From positions 1 to 64,000 of the forward strand of contig JAGQHB010000109.1 of NCBI GenBank assembly GCA_020432045.1: a DNA stretch of 64,000 nucleotides. Reading direction: 5' to 3'. The notes beneath the pieces are model-generated. The model saw nothing but the letters and a program-made list of their open reading frames with translations, was not told the DNA's origin and made no database searches. This DNA comes from Dehalococcoidia bacterium (GTDB taxonomy: Bacteria > Chloroflexota > Dehalococcoidia > Tepidiformales > Tepidiformaceae). Below are positions 7,773 through 14,540 of the stretch, piece by piece (the stretch's first letter is position 1; the number at the start of each line of letters is the position of its first letter). A program made the position numbers and the translations under genes.

Positions 7773-9188
7773 TCAGGCGCGCAGAAAGAGGCGGTGTTCG
7801 TCGCCATCAACCTCGATGCGGTCGACAACCTCGCGCAGGGCTGCCTGCAGCTCTTCGAAGTTCATCGATTCCCAGTCGTTGGCGAGGCGTTCACGCTGCT
7901 CCTGGACGCCGCGGCGGCGTTCAGCTTCGGATTCGGCGCTAGCGACTCGCTGACGTGCGGCAGCCAGCACCGATTGGTTCTGTTGATAATCCTCGGCGAG
8001 CCCAGCGCCAAGGGATTTCATGCGCTCGACGGAGAGGTGGCCATGGGCAGCATCGGCCATTAACTCTTCGACCTGGCGGCGATTCTTGCGGGCCTTCGCC
8101 TCGGAGCGGTCCACGTGGGTCTCGAGGTCGTGGATGTAGGAATCGACGTTGCCGGCGCGGTGGACGCGCGTGTTCGCGGGAGCGTCTTCCTGGAGCATTT
8201 CCCGAACGCGCTGTTCAAGCTCCGCAGCTCGCTGCGTGTTGTAGCTGCACGCGTTCTGGTTCGTGCGGCTCTCGCACTGGTAGTAGCGATAGCTTGCGAC
8301 GCGGTCCTCGCCATCTTTGGTCTGCCACTTCTGGCGCCGGCTGACGCCGATGAGCCGGTTGCCGCACTTGCCGCAGTGCACGAGGCCGCTGAGCAGGAAG
8401 GGCTGTACCGAACGGGTGCGCTCGGTGCCGGCGCGAGATTGAAGCAACTCCTGCACGCGGCGAAAGTCGTCGGGGGTAACGAGAGCGGGGTGGCTGCCCG
8501 GGATCTTCACGCCGAACCGCGCATAGGTGCCGAGGTAGACACGGTTTCGGAGGATGTCGCGGACGGTGACCATGCTCCAGCGGCCGCCTCGGCGGGTGGG
8601 AATTTCCTCAGTATTGAGCTGGCCGGCGATGCGGCGAATACCAAGTCCATCCTGCAGGTAGAGGCGGAAGATGTAGCGGACGACAACTGCTTCCTGGGGC
8701 ACGAGGTCGAGGCGACGGCGCGGGCCAACCTGGTACCCGTAGGGTGGGCGGCCCAGGACCTCGCCCCGGACAGCCTTACGGCGCATCGCTGCCCGGACGC
8801 GGTCGGAGACGGTGGCTTCGTCGGGCCGTTGTGCCCAGAGTTCGACCAGTTCCCGCGCGGCCTCGCGGCCGGTTTCGGCGCTCATCACAGTGATGCCCGT
8901 CGCTTCAACCTGCAGGAGGCGCAGCGCGGCCGCCGTCAGATCAGTGCCAAGGGCCGCCGTGCTGTCGATAACAACGACCATGAAGCCGCGTTCGGCACGG
9001 TGGAGGAATTCGATCATCTGGTTGAAGCCGGCTGCAGGGTCGCCGCCCGTGGCGGTATCGAGGAACGTGGCGGCGACCTCGAATCCCTGACGGCTGCAGA
9101 AGTCGAGGAATCCGCGGTTCTGGTCACCGATCGAGCGGCGTTCACCGTCGCGCTTTGCGCCTTCGACGAAGTAACCGACCGCATTCAC
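7773..9188 (-). CDS. Serine-recombinase homologue with lost catalytic residues
   Basis: About 471 aa from the GTG at 9188, which lies 4 nt after the stop of the upstream zinc-ribbon gene, so translation is probably coupled. Domains in order are: a resolvase-like N-terminal domain (1-125); a Recombinase domain (about 130-240, including GRPPYGYQVG and RGGRWSMVTVRDILRNRVYLG); a zinc-beta-ribbon (HCGKCGNRLIG then YYQCES and ACSYN); and a C-terminal coiled coil ending in DRIEVDGDEHRLFLRA. Active large serine recombinases start Y-x-R-V-S and later have D-R-L-x-R. Here the first motif reads YFVEG, with Val8 and Gly10 for Arg and Ser, and the second reads DSTAALGTD. The catalytic residues are gone while the DNA-binding parts remain. 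A non-recombining DNA-binding role is likely. Confidence 0.85.
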   Translation of the reverse strand: MNAVGYFVEGAKRDGERRSIGDQNRGFLDFCSRQGFEVAATFLDTATGGDPAAGFNQMIEFLHRAERGFMVVVIDSTAALGTDLTAAALRLLQVEATGITVMSAETGREAARELVELWAQRPDEATVSDRVRAAMRRKAVRGEVLGRPPYGYQVGPRRRLDLVPQEAVVVRYIFRLYLQDGLGIRRIAGQLNTEEIPTRRGGRWSMVTVRDILRNRVYLGTYARFGVKIPGSHPALVTPDDFRRVQELLQSRAGTERTRSVQPFLLSGLVHCGKCGNRLIGVSRRQKWQTKDGEDRVASYRYYQCESRTNQNACSYNTQRAAELEQRVREMLQEDAPANTRVHRAGNVDSYIHDLETHVDRSEAKARKNRRQVEELMADAAHGHLSVERMKSLGAGLAEDYQQNQSVLAAARQRVASAESEAERRRGVQEQRERLANDWESMNFEELQAALREVVDRIEVDGDEHRLFLRA

Positions 9189-9192
9189 GCTG

Positions 9193-9894
9193 CTAGCCCG
9201 GCGCCAGGATGCGCTCGCAGTGCGGGCACTGGACAAGAGTCGGGGAATTAATGACACGGCGCCGCACGGGTTCGGGAATGGCGACGCGGCATCCAGCACA
9301 GGAGTTCCCGCCGGCGCGTACCACGACCTTCGACCCTTTGCGCTTACGGAGGCCGTCGTAGAGGCGGACGTTTCCGGGCGTAATTCTCCCCACCTGTGCT
9401 TCGCGCTCGGCTTCCTGGGCCACAATCTTCGTGTTAACCGCGACGACCTCTGCTTTCAGACGCGTAGCAGTCGCTTTCCACGCCTTTTCAAGCGTAGCGA
9501 CCGAAGCACTCGCAGCTTCGAGCCGCTGCGACAGTTCTTCAGCGCGCGCAATAACTTCGAGTGCTTCATCTTCGGCCTGTGAGCGGCTGGCGCGGATATT
9601 GTCGACCTCGTGTTGCAGCGCCTCAAGGTCGCGGGGCGTCTTGATTGACCCGTCGTACATTCGGCCTTCGTCGCGGACGATCTTTGCATCGAGGTCCTGG
9701 ATCGTCGCTTCAAGCGTTCGCTGGGACTTGCGGATGGATTCCAGCTCGGCCGCAATGGACTCTCGTTCTTCGCGAGCAGCGGCGAGTTCGGGGTCTCCCT
9801 CGAGTTGCTCCTGGGCAGCGGCCAACGTGGTGCGAAGCGCATCGAGCGCGTCGTCTATCTCCTGCAAGGTCATGATCGCGAGCAGTTCACTCAT
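9193..9894 (-). CDS. Coiled-coil protein with C4 zinc ribbon (CdsZ/DUF164-like)
   Basis: A 233-aa protein: residues 1-170 are a long charged coiled coil and the end is a C4 zinc ribbon, with CAGC and CPHC about 20 residues apart. This is the layout of the CdsZ/DUF164 family (HP0958-like), small RNA- or protein-binding regulators conserved in many bacteria. Start ATG 9894. Four nt after its stop begins the degenerate recombinase, so the two form a coupled pair. The partner genes usually found with this family (Nif3-like) are not beside it here. The molecular role is not certain. Confidence 0.85.
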   Translation of the reverse strand: MSELLAIMTLQEIDDALDALRTTLAAAQEQLEGDPELAAAREERESIAAELESIRKSQRTLEATIQDLDAKIVRDEGRMYDGSIKTPRDLEALQHEVDNIRASRSQAEDEALEVIARAEELSQRLEAASASVATLEKAWKATATRLKAEVVAVNTKIVAQEAEREAQVGRITPGNVRLYDGLRKRKGSKVVVRAGGNSCAGCRVAIPEPVRRRVINSPTLVQCPHCERILAPG

Positions 9895-10043
9895 AGGGGC
9901 GTTGGGGCTCCATCCAGAAGGCTAACCGCAACGCTAAGATTACGCGGACGGCAGCATGGGGGTAAACGGCGTCAACAGTTGGACGAGCAAAAGGCACGGT
10001 TTGGTCCGGCTTTATGGCAACGAGCCGGGGAAACGGGCTCCCC

Positions 10044-10067: not shown

Positions 10068-10571
10068 ATGTTTTTCAGCGTCTCTGGTCTTTTGCAAGAG
10101 CCGGTCGGGTCAAAGCGGAAGCACGAACTGGGACCACAGGCGCCACTACTGCACGGCACCGTCGAACTGGTGCGGCTCACCCACGCGGTGCTTGTGTGCC
10201 TTAGCGGGGAGGCAGCGGTCGATACGGCGTGCAGCCGGTGCCTGGCGCCGTTCAGCTACGTGGCGCCGTTGCAGTTCGAGGAGATTTTCATCCAGCAGGT
10301 TGAAGTCGCGACAGGTGCGAAGGTGGAGTCAGAGGAGGGGGACGAGGAGTCCTTCACTATCGGGCTCGACCATACGATCGACATTACGGAGGCCGTCCGT
10401 CAATATACCGAGATGGCCGCTGCGATGCAGCCGTTGTGCCAACCCGAGTGTCCTGGGTTGTGCGCCGAATGCGGCCAAGATCTTACTCTCGGGGCGTGTG
10501 CCTGCGACAGGACACCGCTCGACAGCCGTTGGGCCGCGCTCGCCGAGCTAAGGCTGCGTTCGAATGGCTAA
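10068..10571 (+). CDS. yceD: YceD/DUF177 protein (23S rRNA accumulation)
   Basis: A 167-aa DUF177-family protein, needed in other bacteria and plastids for normal 23S rRNA levels. It has a Cys cluster typical of the family (ACSRCLAPF about residues 48-56, and near the end CQPECPGLCAECGQDL), probably binding zinc. It sits directly upstream of rpmF with a 17-nt gap, the classic yceD-rpmF pair that leads many fatty-acid operons. The start has a strong GGGAGGGG site. It is the first gene of the block leading to fabD, fabG and acpP. Confidence 0.92.
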   Translation: MFFSVSGLLQEPVGSKRKHELGPQAPLLHGTVELVRLTHAVLVCLSGEAAVDTACSRCLAPFSYVAPLQFEEIFIQQVEVATGAKVESEEGDEESFTIGLDHTIDITEAVRQYTEMAAAMQPLCQPECPGLCAECGQDLTLGACACDRTPLDSRWAALAELRLRSNG

Positions 10572-10588
10572 TTTGAAGGAGACACCCT

Positions 10589-10786
10589 ATGCCCCCGCTT
10601 CCAAAGCGGAAGTATCCGAAATCGCGACAGGGGAAGCGCCGGAGTCACGACGCTTTGAAACTGCCCCACGTCGTGGACTGCCCCAGGTGCAAGAGCCCAC
10701 GGATGGCGCATCACGCGTGTCCGGTGTGCGGGACGTACCGGGGCCGGGAAGCGATGCAGCTGGAGTCTCCGGAACTCGACAGCTAG
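10589..10786 (+). CDS. rpmF: 50S ribosomal protein bL32
   Basis: A 65-aa protein with the normal bL32 start (PPLPKRKYPKSRQGKRR) and the zinc-binding C-x-x-C pairs CPRC and CPVC. It is a component of the large ribosomal subunit. AAGGAG lies 8 nt before ATG 10589. Its presence between yceD and fabD is the common arrangement linking ribosome and membrane-lipid synthesis. Confidence 0.96.
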   Translation: MPPLPKRKYPKSRQGKRRSHDALKLPHVVDCPRCKSPRMAHHACPVCGTYRGREAMQLESPELDS

Positions 10787-10827
10787 GTTCCGTCGCCGCG
10801 ACCCAGTTCCTCACCTATTCGGATGCA

Positions 10828-11751
10828 ATCGCGAGCGACCGTGCATTCGTCTTTCCAGGCCAGGGCGCTCAGTTCGTCGGCATGGGGAAGGATCTGTACG
10901 AGCAGTTCGCGTCCGCGCGGGAACTGTACGATCGTGCTGACGAGATCCTTGGCTTTGGGCTGAGCAAAGTCTGCTTTGACGGCCCCGAAGAGGTGCTTCA
11001 GCAGACGCGAAACACTCAGCCCGCCATCGCGGTCACGAGCCTCGCGCTCCTAAAAGTCGCCACCGAGGTAACTCCCGCGCTCCTTGACCGCCCGGCATTC
11101 GTGGCAGGGCACTCGCTTGGCGAATACGCGGCGCTGGTGGCGTCCGGCTCCCTCGGATTCGAGACGGCGATTCGGCTGCTTCGTGCCCGCGGCGAACTGA
11201 TGCAGCAGTCCGGCGAACGTAATCCCGGGACGATGGCGGCGATTCTCGGCCTGGACCTGAACGATTGCGAAGAGGTCTGCCGGGAGTCCGGCGCCGAAGT
11301 TTGCAACGTGAACGCTCCGGGCCAGGTGGTCATCGGAGGCCGCCGCGAGGCTGTCGTCCGTGCACTTGACTACGCCAAAGCGCGTGGTGCGGCAAAGGTC
11401 ATCCCGTTGAGCGTCAGTGGCGCCTTCCATAGCTCACTGATGAGGCCAGCTGCGGATGGCATGGTGCACCAGATCGCGACTGCGTCAATCAACATGTCGC
11501 CGATCCCGGTGATCGCCAACTGCAGTGCGTCGCCGATTACCGACGAACTTTCGATTCGCAATGAGCTGGTGGACCAGGTGTGCAGCCCGGTGCGCTGGAG
11601 TTCAACGGTCGATTATCTCGGCGAACAGGGCGTAACGACGTTCATCGAATTCGGTCCAGGACGTGTGCTGACCGGCATCATCAAGCGGATGCTGCGGAAG
11701 TCGAACTGCGCCAATGTGAACGACGCGGCTTCGGTCGCGGTCGCTCTCTAA
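10828..11751 (+). CDS. fabD: Malonyl-CoA:ACP transacylase FabD (start codon unclear)
   Basis: This protein transfers malonyl from CoA to acyl carrier protein to supply fatty-acid elongation. Family motifs are FVFPGQGAQ near the N-terminus, the nucleophile elbow GHSLGEYAAL, and SGAFHSSLM with the catalytic His. From about 10828 the length is about 307 aa, normal for the family. No ATG, GTG or TTG lies in this frame at a sensible place. The nearest in-frame GTG lies inside rpmF, and the ATG at 10823 is one frame off. One extra base after that ATG would give the perfect start MAIASDRAFVFPG. Either a rare start (ATC 10828) is used or one base is missing here. Confidence 0.9.
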   Translation: MASDRAFVFPGQGAQFVGMGKDLYEQFASARELYDRADEILGFGLSKVCFDGPEEVLQQTRNTQPAIAVTSLALLKVATEVTPALLDRPAFVAGHSLGEYAALVASGSLGFETAIRLLRARGELMQQSGERNPGTMAAILGLDLNDCEEVCRESGAEVCNVNAPGQVVIGGRREAVVRALDYAKARGAAKVIPLSVSGAFHSSLMRPAADGMVHQIATASINMSPIPVIANCSASPITDELSIRNELVDQVCSPVRWSSTVDYLGEQGVTTFIEFGPGRVLTGIIKRMLRKSNCANVNDAASVAVAL

Positions 11752-11758
11752 AGCCCGG

Positions 11759-12508
11759 ATGGGTGAACTTGAGGGGAAGTCCGCGCTTATCACGGGTGCG
11801 TCACGAGGTATTGGGCGAGCAATCGCCCTTGCACTGGCCCAACAGGGCGCCCGGGTGGCCATCAACTACGTCGCCTCAGCGACGGCAGCCGAGGCGGTCG
11901 TCGCTGAGGTTGTGGCTGCCGGCGGTGAAGCGGTGCTCGTCCAGGGCGACGTAGCAGTCGTTGAGGATGCGGCCCGGATCGTAAAAGCAACGGTCGACGC
12001 CTTCGGCGGACTGGACATCCTCGTGAACAACGCCGGCATCACTCGTGACGGCCTGCTCATGCGGATGTCGGAGGATGATTGGGACTCGGTCCACAACACG
12101 AACCTTCGAGGTGCGTTCCTGGTCACGCGGGCAGCGATGCGGCCGATGCTTCGGGCGCGGGGCGGCCGGATCATTAACGTCTCCAGCGTTGTAGGCGTGG
12201 TGGGCAACCCTGGCCAGGCTAACTATGCGGCGGCGAAGGCTGGCCTCATCGGCTTCACGCGCTCAGTCGCGCGAGAAGTGGCGTCGCGGGGAATCACCGT
12301 CAACGCGATTGCACCAGGGTTCATCGTCACCGATATCACGAACGCTATGAACGAGGCACAGGTGGCAGCTGTGATGGGACAGGTGCCGCTCGGGCGGATG
12401 GCGCAGCCGGAGGAGGTAGCACCGCTGGTCGTGTTTCTTGCGAGCAGCGGAGCAAGCTACATCACCGGTCAGTGCATCAACGTGGACGGTGGTATGGTCA
12501 TGGGGTGA
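11759..12508 (+). CDS. fabG: 3-oxoacyl-ACP reductase FabG
   Basis: A 249-aa SDR enzyme that reduces 3-oxoacyl-ACP in fatty-acid synthesis. It has the cofactor motif TGASRGIG, NNAG, the active-site Ser in VSSVVG and an intact Y-A-A-A-K. The C-terminal block [16 protein letters not shown] is typical of FabG. It starts 7 nt after fabD and its stop overlaps the GTG of nusB. Position between fabD and acpP supports the FabG call over other SDRs. Confidence 0.95.
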   Translation: MGELEGKSALITGASRGIGRAIALALAQQGARVAINYVASATAAEAVVAEVVAAGGEAVLVQGDVAVVEDAARIVKATVDAFGGLDILVNNAGITRDGLLMRMSEDDWDSVHNTNLRGAFLVTRAAMRPMLRARGGRIINVSSVVGVVGNPGQANYAAAKAGLIGFTRSVAREVASRGITVNAIAPGFIVTDITNAMNEAQVAAVMGQVPLGRMAQPEEVAPLVVFLASSGASYITGQCINVDGGMVMG

Positions 12509-13008
12509 CCGACAGCCCCCTCCGTCGCGTCCGGCAGTTGGTGCTGGAAGCGCTTTACGAATCCGACACCAGCACGCACGGCGCAGAGGGTAGCTTCGTG
12601 CGCCTGATTCACGATGCCGCCACAGAAGACGCTACGATGCGGGCGCCGGCATTGAGCGGATTTGGCGTCGGTGCGATCCGTGGGGTCACCCGGCTTCGGG
12701 ACCAGCTGGATGACTACATCCAGGACGCGGCGACGCTCTATCCGGTGGAGACGATGGCAGTCGTTGACCGGAACATTCTGCGGCTTGCAATATGGGAACT
12801 CGTTACCGACGACTCGGCGCCAGTAGGGGCCGTCGTCAACGAGGCTGTGGAGTTGGCACATCGCTACAGTGGGGAAAGCTCTCCGCCATTCATCAACGGG
12901 GTGCTCCGCACAATCTCTCAGCGAATACGTGGCGCCGCTGCGCCTGCTACCAGCAGCGTTACACCCGAGAATCCATCAGGAGAACTGAACCGTGGCGACC
13001 GTATTTGA
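12505..13008 (+). CDS. nusB: Transcription antitermination factor NusB
   Basis: A 167-aa all-helical NusB-family protein that helps load the antitermination complex on rRNA transcripts. Family features are the N-terminal [15 protein letters not shown], the central [12 protein letters not shown] and the C-terminal [13 protein letters not shown]...FINGVL. The GTG at 12505 overlaps the fabG stop (GTGA), so translation is coupled. The frame extends back to 12472 but that part overlaps fabG. The last 17 nt overlap acpP. Confidence 0.93.
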
Positions 13009-13249
13009 CCGTGTCCGCGCAATCGTCGTGGAGCAACTGGGCGTGGAGGAAGACGAAGTCGTCCTCGGGGCCAGTTTTGTCGATGACCTCAACGCCGATT
13101 CGCTCGACCTTGTTGAGCTGATTATGTCGTTAGAGGAAGAGTTTAACGATGGTGGCGAGCTGGAAATCAGCGATGAAGACGCCGAAAAGATCGCCACGGT
13201 GCAGGACGCCGTAGACTATTTGAAGGATCACGGCGTCGAGGACAAGTAG
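12992..13249 (+). CDS. acpP: Acyl carrier protein
   Basis: An 85-aa acidic acyl carrier protein. The phosphopantetheine attachment motif is [10 protein letters not shown], with the Ser about residue 37. It carries growing acyl chains between Fab enzymes. GTG 12992 is preceded by AGGAGA. It overlaps the end of nusB by 17 nt. Confidence 0.97.
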
Positions 13250-13251
13250 TC

Positions 13252-13275
13252 GCGGCCGGCTGTGAGGCTGGCCGC
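13252..13275 (+). terminator. Hairpin after acpP
   Basis: Nine-bp stem (GCGGCCGGC paired with GCTGGCCGC, one G-U pair) with a 6-nt loop, directly after the acpP stop. No T-run follows, so it may be a processing or pause hairpin rather than a full terminator. Confidence 0.35.
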
Positions 13276-13302
13276 CGCTTCCCGCCGGTAGAGGAGCAAC
13301 GC

Positions 13303-13737
13303 GTGCAGTTCCTGGGCGTTGGCTGGCAGGAGATTATCCTTATTGGGATAGCGGCGTTTTTCATCCTTGGACCGCAGCGGCTGCCGATCGTCGCCTACCA
13401 GGTTGGGAAGGCCGTGCGGACGATGCAGCAGTATGCGCGAGCCGTCCGGGACGAATTCAGCGAAGAGATTGGCTACGTCGAGGACCAGTACCGCACAATC
13501 CGCGGTGAGGTCGATCTCACTCGCGATGAACTCCGGAAAGAGCAGCGAAAACTCGAAACGGAGTTTCGGGCCCAGACTGCGGCGCTTGAGACGGGAGTTG
13601 ACGAGGCGCGTCGCTCTATCGAGGGCGCGACCTCAAACATCGTCGCGTTGCCGGAACGCACGTCGACGCCACCCGGAAGCGAATCCCAGGAGCAAGCGCC
13701 TTCCCGGACGGCGGGCGAGCCGCCGTTGGTGTTCTGA
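13303..13737 (+). CDS. Twin-arginine translocase subunit TatA/TatB
   Basis: A 144-aa protein with one N-terminal membrane helix (residues 1-25; GWQEIILIGIAAFFILGPQRLP) followed by an amphipathic helix and a long acidic/charged tail. The early Glu and the G-P-Q-R-L-P hinge are features of the TatB side of the family, and the length also suits TatB. It would work with TatC to export folded proteins. The start GTG 13303 has GAGGAG upstream. Its stop overlaps the tatC start (TGATG). Confidence 0.88.
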   Translation: MQFLGVGWQEIILIGIAAFFILGPQRLPIVAYQVGKAVRTMQQYARAVRDEFSEEIGYVEDQYRTIRGEVDLTRDELRKEQRKLETEFRAQTAALETGVDEARRSIEGATSNIVALPERTSTPPGSESQEQAPSRTAGEPPLVF

Positions 13738-14540
13738 TGGCGACGCAACCAAGCACCTCACCCGAAACAGGCGAGCCTCAATTGAGTGCAGTGCCGGCAC
13801 CTCCCGGTCCGGGGGAAATGACGCTCCTGGAGCACCTGAAGGAGCTCCGGAACCGGCTCATCGTGACGGCCATCTTCGTGGTCGTCGGGGTGGCCGTGTG
13901 CCTGTACTTCTGGGAGACGATCCTGGGATGGATGCTGGCCCCTGCACGTGAGCAGGACCCGACCTTCCAGGTATCGAGCTTCTCGCCAATCGATCGGATC
14001 GGGATCTGGTTCAAGATCGGCATGTACGGCGGCCTGGCCATGGCCTCGCCGGTGATCATCTACGAAACAATGGCATTTGTGCTGCCGGGCCTCACACCCA
14101 AGGAGAAGCGGCTCCTCCTTCCGGGTATGCTCGGGGTCGTCATGTGCCTCCTCGGAGGGATGGCGTTCGCCTACTGGATCATCCTGCCTGCGTCGCTCGG
14201 CTTCCTGCTGGACCTTGGCAGTGACCAGATTCAGAACGTGATCGGCATCAAGGCGTACGTGGACTTCGTCGTCCGCATCGTGTTCTGGGTAGGCGTGGCA
14301 TTTGAATTGCCCATCGTGCTGGCGTTGCTGGGCAAGCTGAACGTGGTCCGTGCCGGCCAGATGTTGCACTTCTGGCGCTACGCCCTGGTGCTCATCTTTA
14401 TCATCGCGGCGGTTGTGACGCCGACGCCGGACGCGCTAACAATGAGCCTGGTGGTAGCGCCGCTGGTGGCGTTGTACGGAATTGGGATGTTGCTTGCGAA
14501 GTTGCTGCAGCCGCGGCAGCCCGCGAGCGCAACAGAATGA
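13737..14540 (+). CDS. tatC: Sec-independent translocase TatC
   Basis: A 267-aa inner-membrane protein with six predicted membrane segments, the Tat receptor for twin-arginine signal peptides. The N-terminus has the expected MTLLEHLKELRNRL, and later FVLPGLTPKEKRLLLPG matches the conserved periplasmic loop. The start overlaps the stop of the TatA/B gene and the stop overlaps the ATG of a small ORF, so three genes are tightly coupled. Confidence 0.95.
   Translation: MATQPSTSPETGEPQLSAVPAPPGPGEMTLLEHLKELRNRLIVTAIFVVVGVAVCLYFWETILGWMLAPAREQDPTFQVSSFSPIDRIGIWFKIGMYGGLAMASPVIIYETMAFVLPGLTPKEKRLLLPGMLGVVMCLLGGMAFAYWIILPASLGFLLDLGSDQIQNVIGIKAYVDFVVRIVFWVGVAFELPIVLALLGKLNVVRAGQMLHFWRYALVLIFIIAAVVTPTPDALTMSLVVAPLVALYGIGMLLAKLLQPRQPASATE

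What the first reader, a model, noticed from the sequence alone, without database searches (positions are those of the whole stretch)
7773..9894. Catalytically dead serine recombinase coupled to a zinc-ribbon coiled-coil gene
The recombinase homologue keeps its Recombinase and zinc-ribbon DNA-binding domains and C-terminal coiled coil, but Y-x-R-V-S is YFVEG and D-R-L-x-R is DSTAALG. It begins 4 nt after a CdsZ-like gene in a housekeeping neighbourhood with no mobile-element ends. This looks like domestication as a DNA-binding or structural protein rather than decay, since the frame is intact.
Basis: partly seen in the sequence, partly recalled or inferred. Interest (0 to 1): 0.65.

Follow-up and report, generated by a model that had tools for sequence, protein, structure and literature searches.

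The report
Domesticated dead phage-type integrase beside CdsZ
A DNA-cutting enzyme of the kind phages use to insert themselves into chromosomes has lost its cutting residues but kept its DNA-binding parts, and has been inherited for a very long time as a single-copy housekeeping gene next to the cdsZ gene across much of one bacterial class (Dehalococcoidia), so it probably now works as a DNA-binding regulator.

Summary
Window 7773-9188(-) encodes a large-serine-recombinase homologue with intact recombinase, zinc-ribbon and coiled-coil domains but none of the four catalytic residues tested. It starts 4 nt after a CdsZ/CT398-type gene (9193-9894).

It is not decay. All 35 Tepidiformaceae genomes in which it was found carry it directly behind cdsZ. 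A profile finds it in 146 of 294 Dehalococcoidia genomes, almost always once. Of 112 distinct cdsZ-linked homologues, none keeps more than two of R8/S10/R68/R71; 12 of 12 ordinary recombinases of the class keep four. The dead group is one side of a strongly supported branch. dN/dS is 0.04-0.29, below cdsZ in every pair.

Genomes without the gene often have cdsZ directly followed by rnhA, while 54 of 113 loci have the dead gene between them. This implies one ancient capture into a cdsZ-rnhA operon. Phage, plasmid and viral collections hold only ordinary recombinases.

Domestication is near certain (about 0.95). Function is inferred: a dimeric DNA-binding protein working with CdsZ, perhaps at its own promoter, where a 13-bp element is conserved and nearly unique per genome. 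Binding is untested. I found no published description.

The parts
7773..9188 (-). catalytically dead large-serine-recombinase homologue (471 aa, GTG start, stop codon included)
8835..9188 (-). degenerate N-terminal resolvase-fold domain (residues 1-118); YFVEG in place of YxRVS, DSTAALG in place of DRLxR
   Evidence: (profile hits 3guv E 2e-5)
8748..8834 (-). connecting helix (alpha-E-like) and linker, residues 119-147; well conserved
8403..8747 (-). recombinase domain (RD, residues 148-262), together with the zinc ribbon the most conserved part
8184..8402 (-). zinc-ribbon domain (residues 263-335) with Cys272/275/305/314
7776..8153 (-). C-terminal coiled-coil hairpin and final beta hairpin (residues 346-471); poorly conserved
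9193..9894 (-). CdsZ/CT398/HP0958-type gene: coiled-coil hairpin plus C4 zinc ribbon (233 aa)
9920..9932 (-). conserved element in the cdsZ upstream region (here GTTGCGGTTAGCC; family consensus GCTA(C/G)GGTTAGCC); operator role inferred
9937..9966 (-). putative cdsZ promoter by family alignment (TTTACC - 18 nt - TAATCT); not found by the strict consensus scan
10068..14540 (+). divergent housekeeping block: DUF177/YceD, rpmF, fabD, fabG, nusB, acpP, tatA, tatC (gene names by reading the sequences)
   Evidence: homologues at the same place in 62-67 of 113 loci

Best explanation
An ancestral mobile-element integrase (large serine recombinase) gene was captured between cdsZ and rnhA of a housekeeping operon in an ancestor of a large part of the Dehalococcoidia. 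It lost its recombinase activity and was then kept by vertical descent as a cellular gene. [Shown or strongly inferred.] The protein most likely acts as a DNA-binding protein: the dimerising connecting helix, recombinase domain and zinc ribbon hold it on a specific site, while the N-terminal domain survives only as a scaffold. [Inferred from selective conservation.] The most likely role is transcriptional: it works together with CdsZ, whose relatives bind sigma factors and RNA polymerase, and it controls at least its own cdsZ operon, perhaps also the divergent rpmF/fatty-acid operon, through the conserved element in the intergenic region. [Hypothesis, about 0.4.]
For: Conserved, single-copy, collinear. 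Active site lost in every cdsZ-linked member, 4/4 present in 12 ordinary recombinases of the same class. Dead group is one side of a branch, SH-aLRT 98 against 10 intact and 100 against 20 intact sequences. Purifying selection, omega 0.04-0.29, lower than cdsZ in all 13 pairs. DNA-binding domains selectively conserved: dead pairs N 20.7, RD 37.3, ZD 41.0 % identity; intact pairs N 30.8, RD 28.5, ZD 28.7; 59 of 72 positions conserved in at least 85% of members lie in RD and ZD, including all four zinc Cys and Tyr300, which aligns with the DNA-contacting Tyr297 of A118 integrase (PMC3783163). Insertion between cdsZ and rnhA. Absent from mobile-element collections. Conserved 13-bp element, 0-2 mismatches in 31 of 33 upstream regions (shuffles: 0.7% at most 2 mismatches), exact match once per genome in 8 of 10, in 7 of them at this promoter. 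CdsZ relatives: Wcw_1456 has 835 ChIP-seq peaks and pulls down RpoD; CT398 binds the RpoN holoenzyme; HP0958 stabilises RpoN (PMC6426960, PMC5947703).
Against: No binding, expression or interaction data exist. Families f2, f7 and f50 have the dead protein without a recognisable cdsZ, so a strict two-protein complex is not universal. The 13-bp element is downstream of a promoter-like sequence and could be a promoter or translation element unrelated to this protein; an extended palindrome expected for an integrase dimer was looked for and not found. An A118-type integrase dimer is expected to cover about 50 bp (PMC3783163), longer than the conserved element.
Confidence: 0.55

Rival explanations
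1. It is a decaying integrase pseudogene left by a lost prophage or island, with a frame that happens to be open.
For: Catalytic residues gone; N-terminal domain evolves fast.
Against: Single-copy and full length at the same place in 35 of 37 family genomes and across much of the class; omega 0.04-0.29; better conserved than the neighbour cdsZ.
Confidence: 0.01
2. It is still a recombinase that uses a different nucleophile or works as the inactive half of a heterodimer with an active partner.
For: Fold of the N-terminal domain is retained; R8 is kept in about half of the class members, and some Tepidiforma have a Ser at the S10 position.
Against: No alternative catalytic set is conserved; only 5 N-domain positions reach 85%; the window genome has no other Recombinase-domain protein; the Ser-bearing Tepidiforma members lack all the arginines.
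Confidence: 0.05
3. Chromosome-structure or R-loop factor: the dead integrase binds or bridges DNA and works with CdsZ and RNase HI at transcription-replication conflicts, not as a classical regulator.
For: Gene order cdsZ - dead integrase - rnhA in 54 of 113 loci; cdsZ-rnhA without it in relatives; coiled coils in both proteins.
Against: rnhA has left the locus in the window and many relatives; gene order can be inherited passively; no evidence for many binding sites.
Confidence: 0.2
4. Local regulator of the divergent rpmF/fatty-acid operon, independent of CdsZ.
For: Genes of that operon are divergent from it in 62-67 of 113 loci, also in f2 genomes where cdsZ is gone and the dead gene lies next to rpmF/yceD.
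Against: About 40% of loci lack this neighbour in the stretch held; the element lies on the cdsZ side of the intergenic region.
Confidence: 0.2
5. Integration decoy: it occupies attachment sites or poisons incoming serine integrases and so protects the chromosome from mobile elements.
For: Dominant-negative design is possible for a protein with intact DNA-binding and dimerisation parts; many relatives carry ordinary integrases.
Against: Vertical inheritance with strong constraint over a class does not fit an arms race; housekeeping operon context; no defence neighbours seen.
Confidence: 0.05

Closest known systems
Large serine recombinases/integrases (A118 and SPbeta integrase, phiC31, Bxb1; XisF, CcrA/B/C)
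   Same: Same domain order and fold: resolvase-like N domain, connecting helix, recombinase domain, zinc ribbon with embedded coiled coil.
   Different: No catalytic Ser or Arg; chromosomal, vertically inherited, operonic with cdsZ; no mobile element around it.
Domesticated mobile-element recombinases with retained activity (Hin, XisF, XerS)
   Same: Host keeps a mobile-element recombinase.
   Different: Those still recombine DNA; the review consulted (PMC8987985) lists active co-opted recombinases and, in the passages found, no inactivated serine integrase.
Transposon-derived transcription factors (TldR, known to me to derive from nuclease-dead TnpB)
   Same: A mobile-element protein acts as a transcription factor (abstract of PMC13418256).
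   Different: Unrelated fold; RNA-guided and phage-encoded; the analogy is of principle only.
CdsZ/CT398/HP0958 (FlgZ)/MSMEG_4306 family
   Same: The upstream partner has the coiled-coil hairpin and C4 zinc ribbon.
   Different: Known members are not described next to an integrase; sigma54/T3SS roles cannot simply be carried over.

Membership tests
Large serine recombinase (functional) | Recombinase domain PF07508 | tested here: met
   78.1 bits against cut-off 21.1
Large serine recombinase (functional) | Zinc-ribbon domain with four zinc cysteines and embedded coiled coil | tested here: met
   PF13408 45.2 bits; Cys272/275/305/314 conserved; helices 348-438 in the model
Large serine recombinase (functional) | Resolvase-fold N-terminal domain | tested here: met
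   Profile hits 3guv (E 2e-5) and 1gdt (0.009); Foldseek hits to resolvase N domains; no Pfam Resolvase hit
Large serine recombinase (functional) | Catalytic Ser10 and Arg8/68/71 | tested here: not met
   0 of 4 in the window; at most 2 of 4 in 112 cdsZ-linked homologues; 4 of 4 in 12 ordinary recombinases
Large serine recombinase (functional) | Part of a mobile element | tested here: not met
   Conserved housekeeping context in relatives; only ordinary recombinases in viral, phage and plasmid collections
CdsZ/CT398 family (partner gene) | Coiled-coil hairpin plus C4 zinc ribbon | tested here: met
   PF24481 67.9 bits; four Cys invariant in 24 homologues; profile hits 5y05, 4ilo, 3na7. NCBIfam CdsZ equivalog cut-off not reached (58.6 of 275)
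CdsZ/CT398 family (partner gene) | Binds sigma factor/RNA polymerase | not testable with these tools
   Known for CT398, HP0958, Wcw_1456 from papers
Domesticated (host-captured) mobile-element protein | Vertical inheritance at a fixed place, single copy, purifying selection | tested here: met
DNA-binding transcription regulator | Sequence-specific binding and effect on transcription | not testable with these tools
   Only indirect: conserved DNA-binding domains and conserved upstream element

The most novel reading that the evidence does not exclude
A phage-type integrase was turned into a class-wide core transcription or genome-maintenance factor of Dehalococcoidia: the dead integrase supplies sequence-specific DNA binding and CdsZ links it to sigma factor or RNA polymerase, with RNase HI as an ancestral third partner. 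That would be a regulator type built on a serine-integrase scaffold, and would give CdsZ proteins a DNA-targeting partner.
Probability: 0.3. Interest if true: 0.85.

Novelty: new variant of a known kind. Interest (0 to 1): 0.7.

Why it matters
Hosts often capture mobile-element recombinases, but usually keep them active. Here a large serine integrase lost catalysis and was retained over the depth of a bacterial class inside a housekeeping operon. By its domains it would be annotated as a 'recombinase', and so it hides in plain sight. It also offers a way into the function of CdsZ, whose homologue Rv2229c is reported as essential in M. tuberculosis (PMC5947703): what does the partner bind, and does it place CdsZ on DNA? 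The family gives a natural set of integrase DNA-binding domains freed from catalysis.

Tried and rejected
Decay or pseudogene: rejected. Long TTG start (550 aa): rejected by start conservation. A Ser set elsewhere in the N domain: not found. A regulon of the 13-bp element: exact search gave one place per genome, so no regulon at that stringency. A 9-3-9 palindrome around the element: not better than other places in the upstream region. Dead homologues on phages or plasmids: only ordinary recombinases at 38% identity or less. Relatives outside the class: two f101 genomes matched weakly and proved to be integrases with the catalytic motifs in place, one with an in-frame stop. Literature searches for a described inactive or domesticated serine integrase gave none. 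A CdsZ-integrase complex could not be modelled because only single chains are offered.

Full report
WHAT IS THERE. On the minus strand, cdsZ (9894-9193, 233 aa) is followed after 4 nt by a 471-aa gene (9188-7773, GTG start). Pfam finds the Recombinase domain and the recombinase zinc ribbon, but no Resolvase domain. The AlphaFold2 model (87 aligned sequences, pLDDT 92.1, pTM 0.77) shows an alpha/beta N domain, a connecting helix, RD, zinc ribbon and a long helical hairpin. Foldseek puts SPbeta, phiC31, Bxb1 and A118 integrases first. Whole-chain TM-scores are low, probably because the domains are arranged differently, so the fold assignment rests on E-values and on separate domains.

CATALYTIC RESIDUES. 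I aligned the family with 12 ordinary recombinases from genomes of the class. All 12 have R8, S10, R68 and R71 (gamma-delta numbering). The window has V, G, A and T at those columns. Among 112 distinct homologues that sit behind cdsZ, 53 keep none, 48 keep one and 11 keep two of the four. The only family-profile hit with all four (L185) is not beside cdsZ, and its genome also has a dead, cdsZ-linked copy (L170). R8 survives in about half (YFREG), and some f20-type members read YFRVT, so the loss looks stepwise. A few Tepidiforma have Ser at position 10 (YFSAS) without any of the arginines. Alignment of the N domain in the most divergent members is uncertain, but not in the window.

CONSERVATION. 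In the family of the window (Tepidiformaceae by record titles), 35 of 37 genomes have the gene, 55-68% identical in most, and one 1.4-Mb genome has a 29% version. In all 35 the cdsZ gene is directly upstream on the same strand. Of the two missing, G002 is 78% complete and G014 has cdsZ cut by a contig end. Across the class the profile finds the gene in 146 of 294 genomes at E up to 1e-60, nearly always once; in an even sample of the phylum only class members and two ordinary integrases match. Over all fetched loci, 112 of 125 dead homologues have cdsZ upstream (median gap 4 nt, 96 within 15 nt); three of the rest are contig ends and ten belong to families f2, f7 and f50, in six sampled genomes of which no cdsZ was found at all. 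Pairwise dN/dS is 0.04-0.29 and below that of cdsZ in all 13 pairs (simple NG86 estimates).

WHERE THE CONSTRAINT LIES. Between distant dead members, N-domain identity is 20.7% while RD and ZD are 37.3 and 41.0%; between ordinary integrases the three are about equal (30.8, 28.5, 28.7%). Of 72 positions conserved in at least 85% of 87 diverse members, 59 are in RD and ZD. The four zinc cysteines are among them, and Tyr300 aligns with Tyr297 of A118 integrase, which contacts thymines in the attP half-site (PMC3783163; numbering anchored on its Cys302). This is the pattern expected if catalysis was dropped and DNA binding kept.

ORIGIN. The dead sequences form one side of a branch against 10 intact (SH-aLRT 98) and 20 intact sequences including viral ones (SH-aLRT 100). 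In genomes without the gene, cdsZ is directly followed by rnhA in several families of the class and in another class of the phylum (L210, L211, L215, L217, L221, L222, L223). In 54 of 113 loci with the gene, rnhA follows it. The simplest history is one capture of an integrase gene between cdsZ and rnhA, with later loss of rnhA from the locus in lineages such as that of the window, and loss of cdsZ in f2. Viral, phage and plasmid collections have only ordinary recombinases.

SURROUNDINGS. Upstream and divergent lies yceD(DUF177)-rpmF-fabD-fabG-nusB-acpP-tatA-tatC; homologues of these are at the same place in 62-67 of 113 loci. In the Tepidiformaceae the intergenic region has a promoter-like TTTAC - 17/18 nt - TA...T facing cdsZ, and just downstream GCTA(C/G)GGTTAGCC, with 0-2 mismatches in 31 of 33 sequences against 0.7% of shuffles. 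In ten genomes the exact element occurs once in each of eight, in seven of them at this promoter. It ends 1-41 nt before the start codon, so it is tied to the promoter more than to the ribosome site. Other families have a different conserved block at the same place. This looks like a dedicated operator, but the strict promoter scan found nothing, a longer palindrome was not supported, and no binding is shown.

HOW IT MAY WORK. An A118-type integrase dimer is expected to cover about 50 bp through its connecting helix, RD and ZD (PMC3783163). The dead protein keeps these. CdsZ relatives bind sigma factors and RNA polymerase: CT398 with the RpoN holoenzyme, HP0958 as RpoN chaperone, Wcw_1456 with 835 ChIP peaks and an RpoD pull-down that its authors could not confirm by co-immunoprecipitation. 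I therefore think the most likely role is a DNA-binding regulator that acts with CdsZ, at least on its own operon. The domestication is about 0.95 likely; this mechanism about 0.4. A structural or R-loop role with RNase HI is the main rival.

KNOWN OR NEW. No paper found in the library describes an inactive serine integrase kept as a cellular gene; the library lacks most subscription papers and all preprints. By fold it belongs with the large serine recombinases; by the catalytic test it is not a functional one. I rate it a new variant of a known kind.

Noticed in passing
window 9920-9932 (-); L003-L036 upstream regions: Conserved element GCTA(C/G)GGTTAGCC at the cdsZ promoter, occurring once per genome in most genomes tested.
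   Followed up: partly
L100-L134 (upstream of cdsZ): Another group of families has its own conserved block AGTCTATAATCC..GC.GCAGGC.TTGTCCA at the same promoter position.
   Followed up: no
L183 (downstream of the dead integrase): Gene order cdsZ - dead integrase - rnhA followed by what looks like an RNase P RNA gene (read by eye, not run through Rfam).
   Followed up: no
L040, L158, L159, L162, L165, L171, L177 (family f2): cdsZ is gone but the dead integrase remains, beside the rpmF/fab block in the loci examined.
   Followed up: partly
L185:4586-6100 (-), G103: Closest intact integrase to the dead family (all four catalytic residues), in a genome that also has a dead cdsZ-linked copy; possible model of the ancestor.
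   Followed up: partly
L042 (G008): Very divergent (29%) copy in a 1.4-Mb genome of the same family, still behind cdsZ.
   Followed up: no
   Followed up: no
L144: Record titled Thermoflexus hugenholtzii carries a family member that groups with Dehalococcoidia MAGs; the label may be wrong.
   Followed up: no
L201 (G324): Ordinary serine integrase interrupted by an in-frame stop, in another class of the phylum.
   Followed up: no
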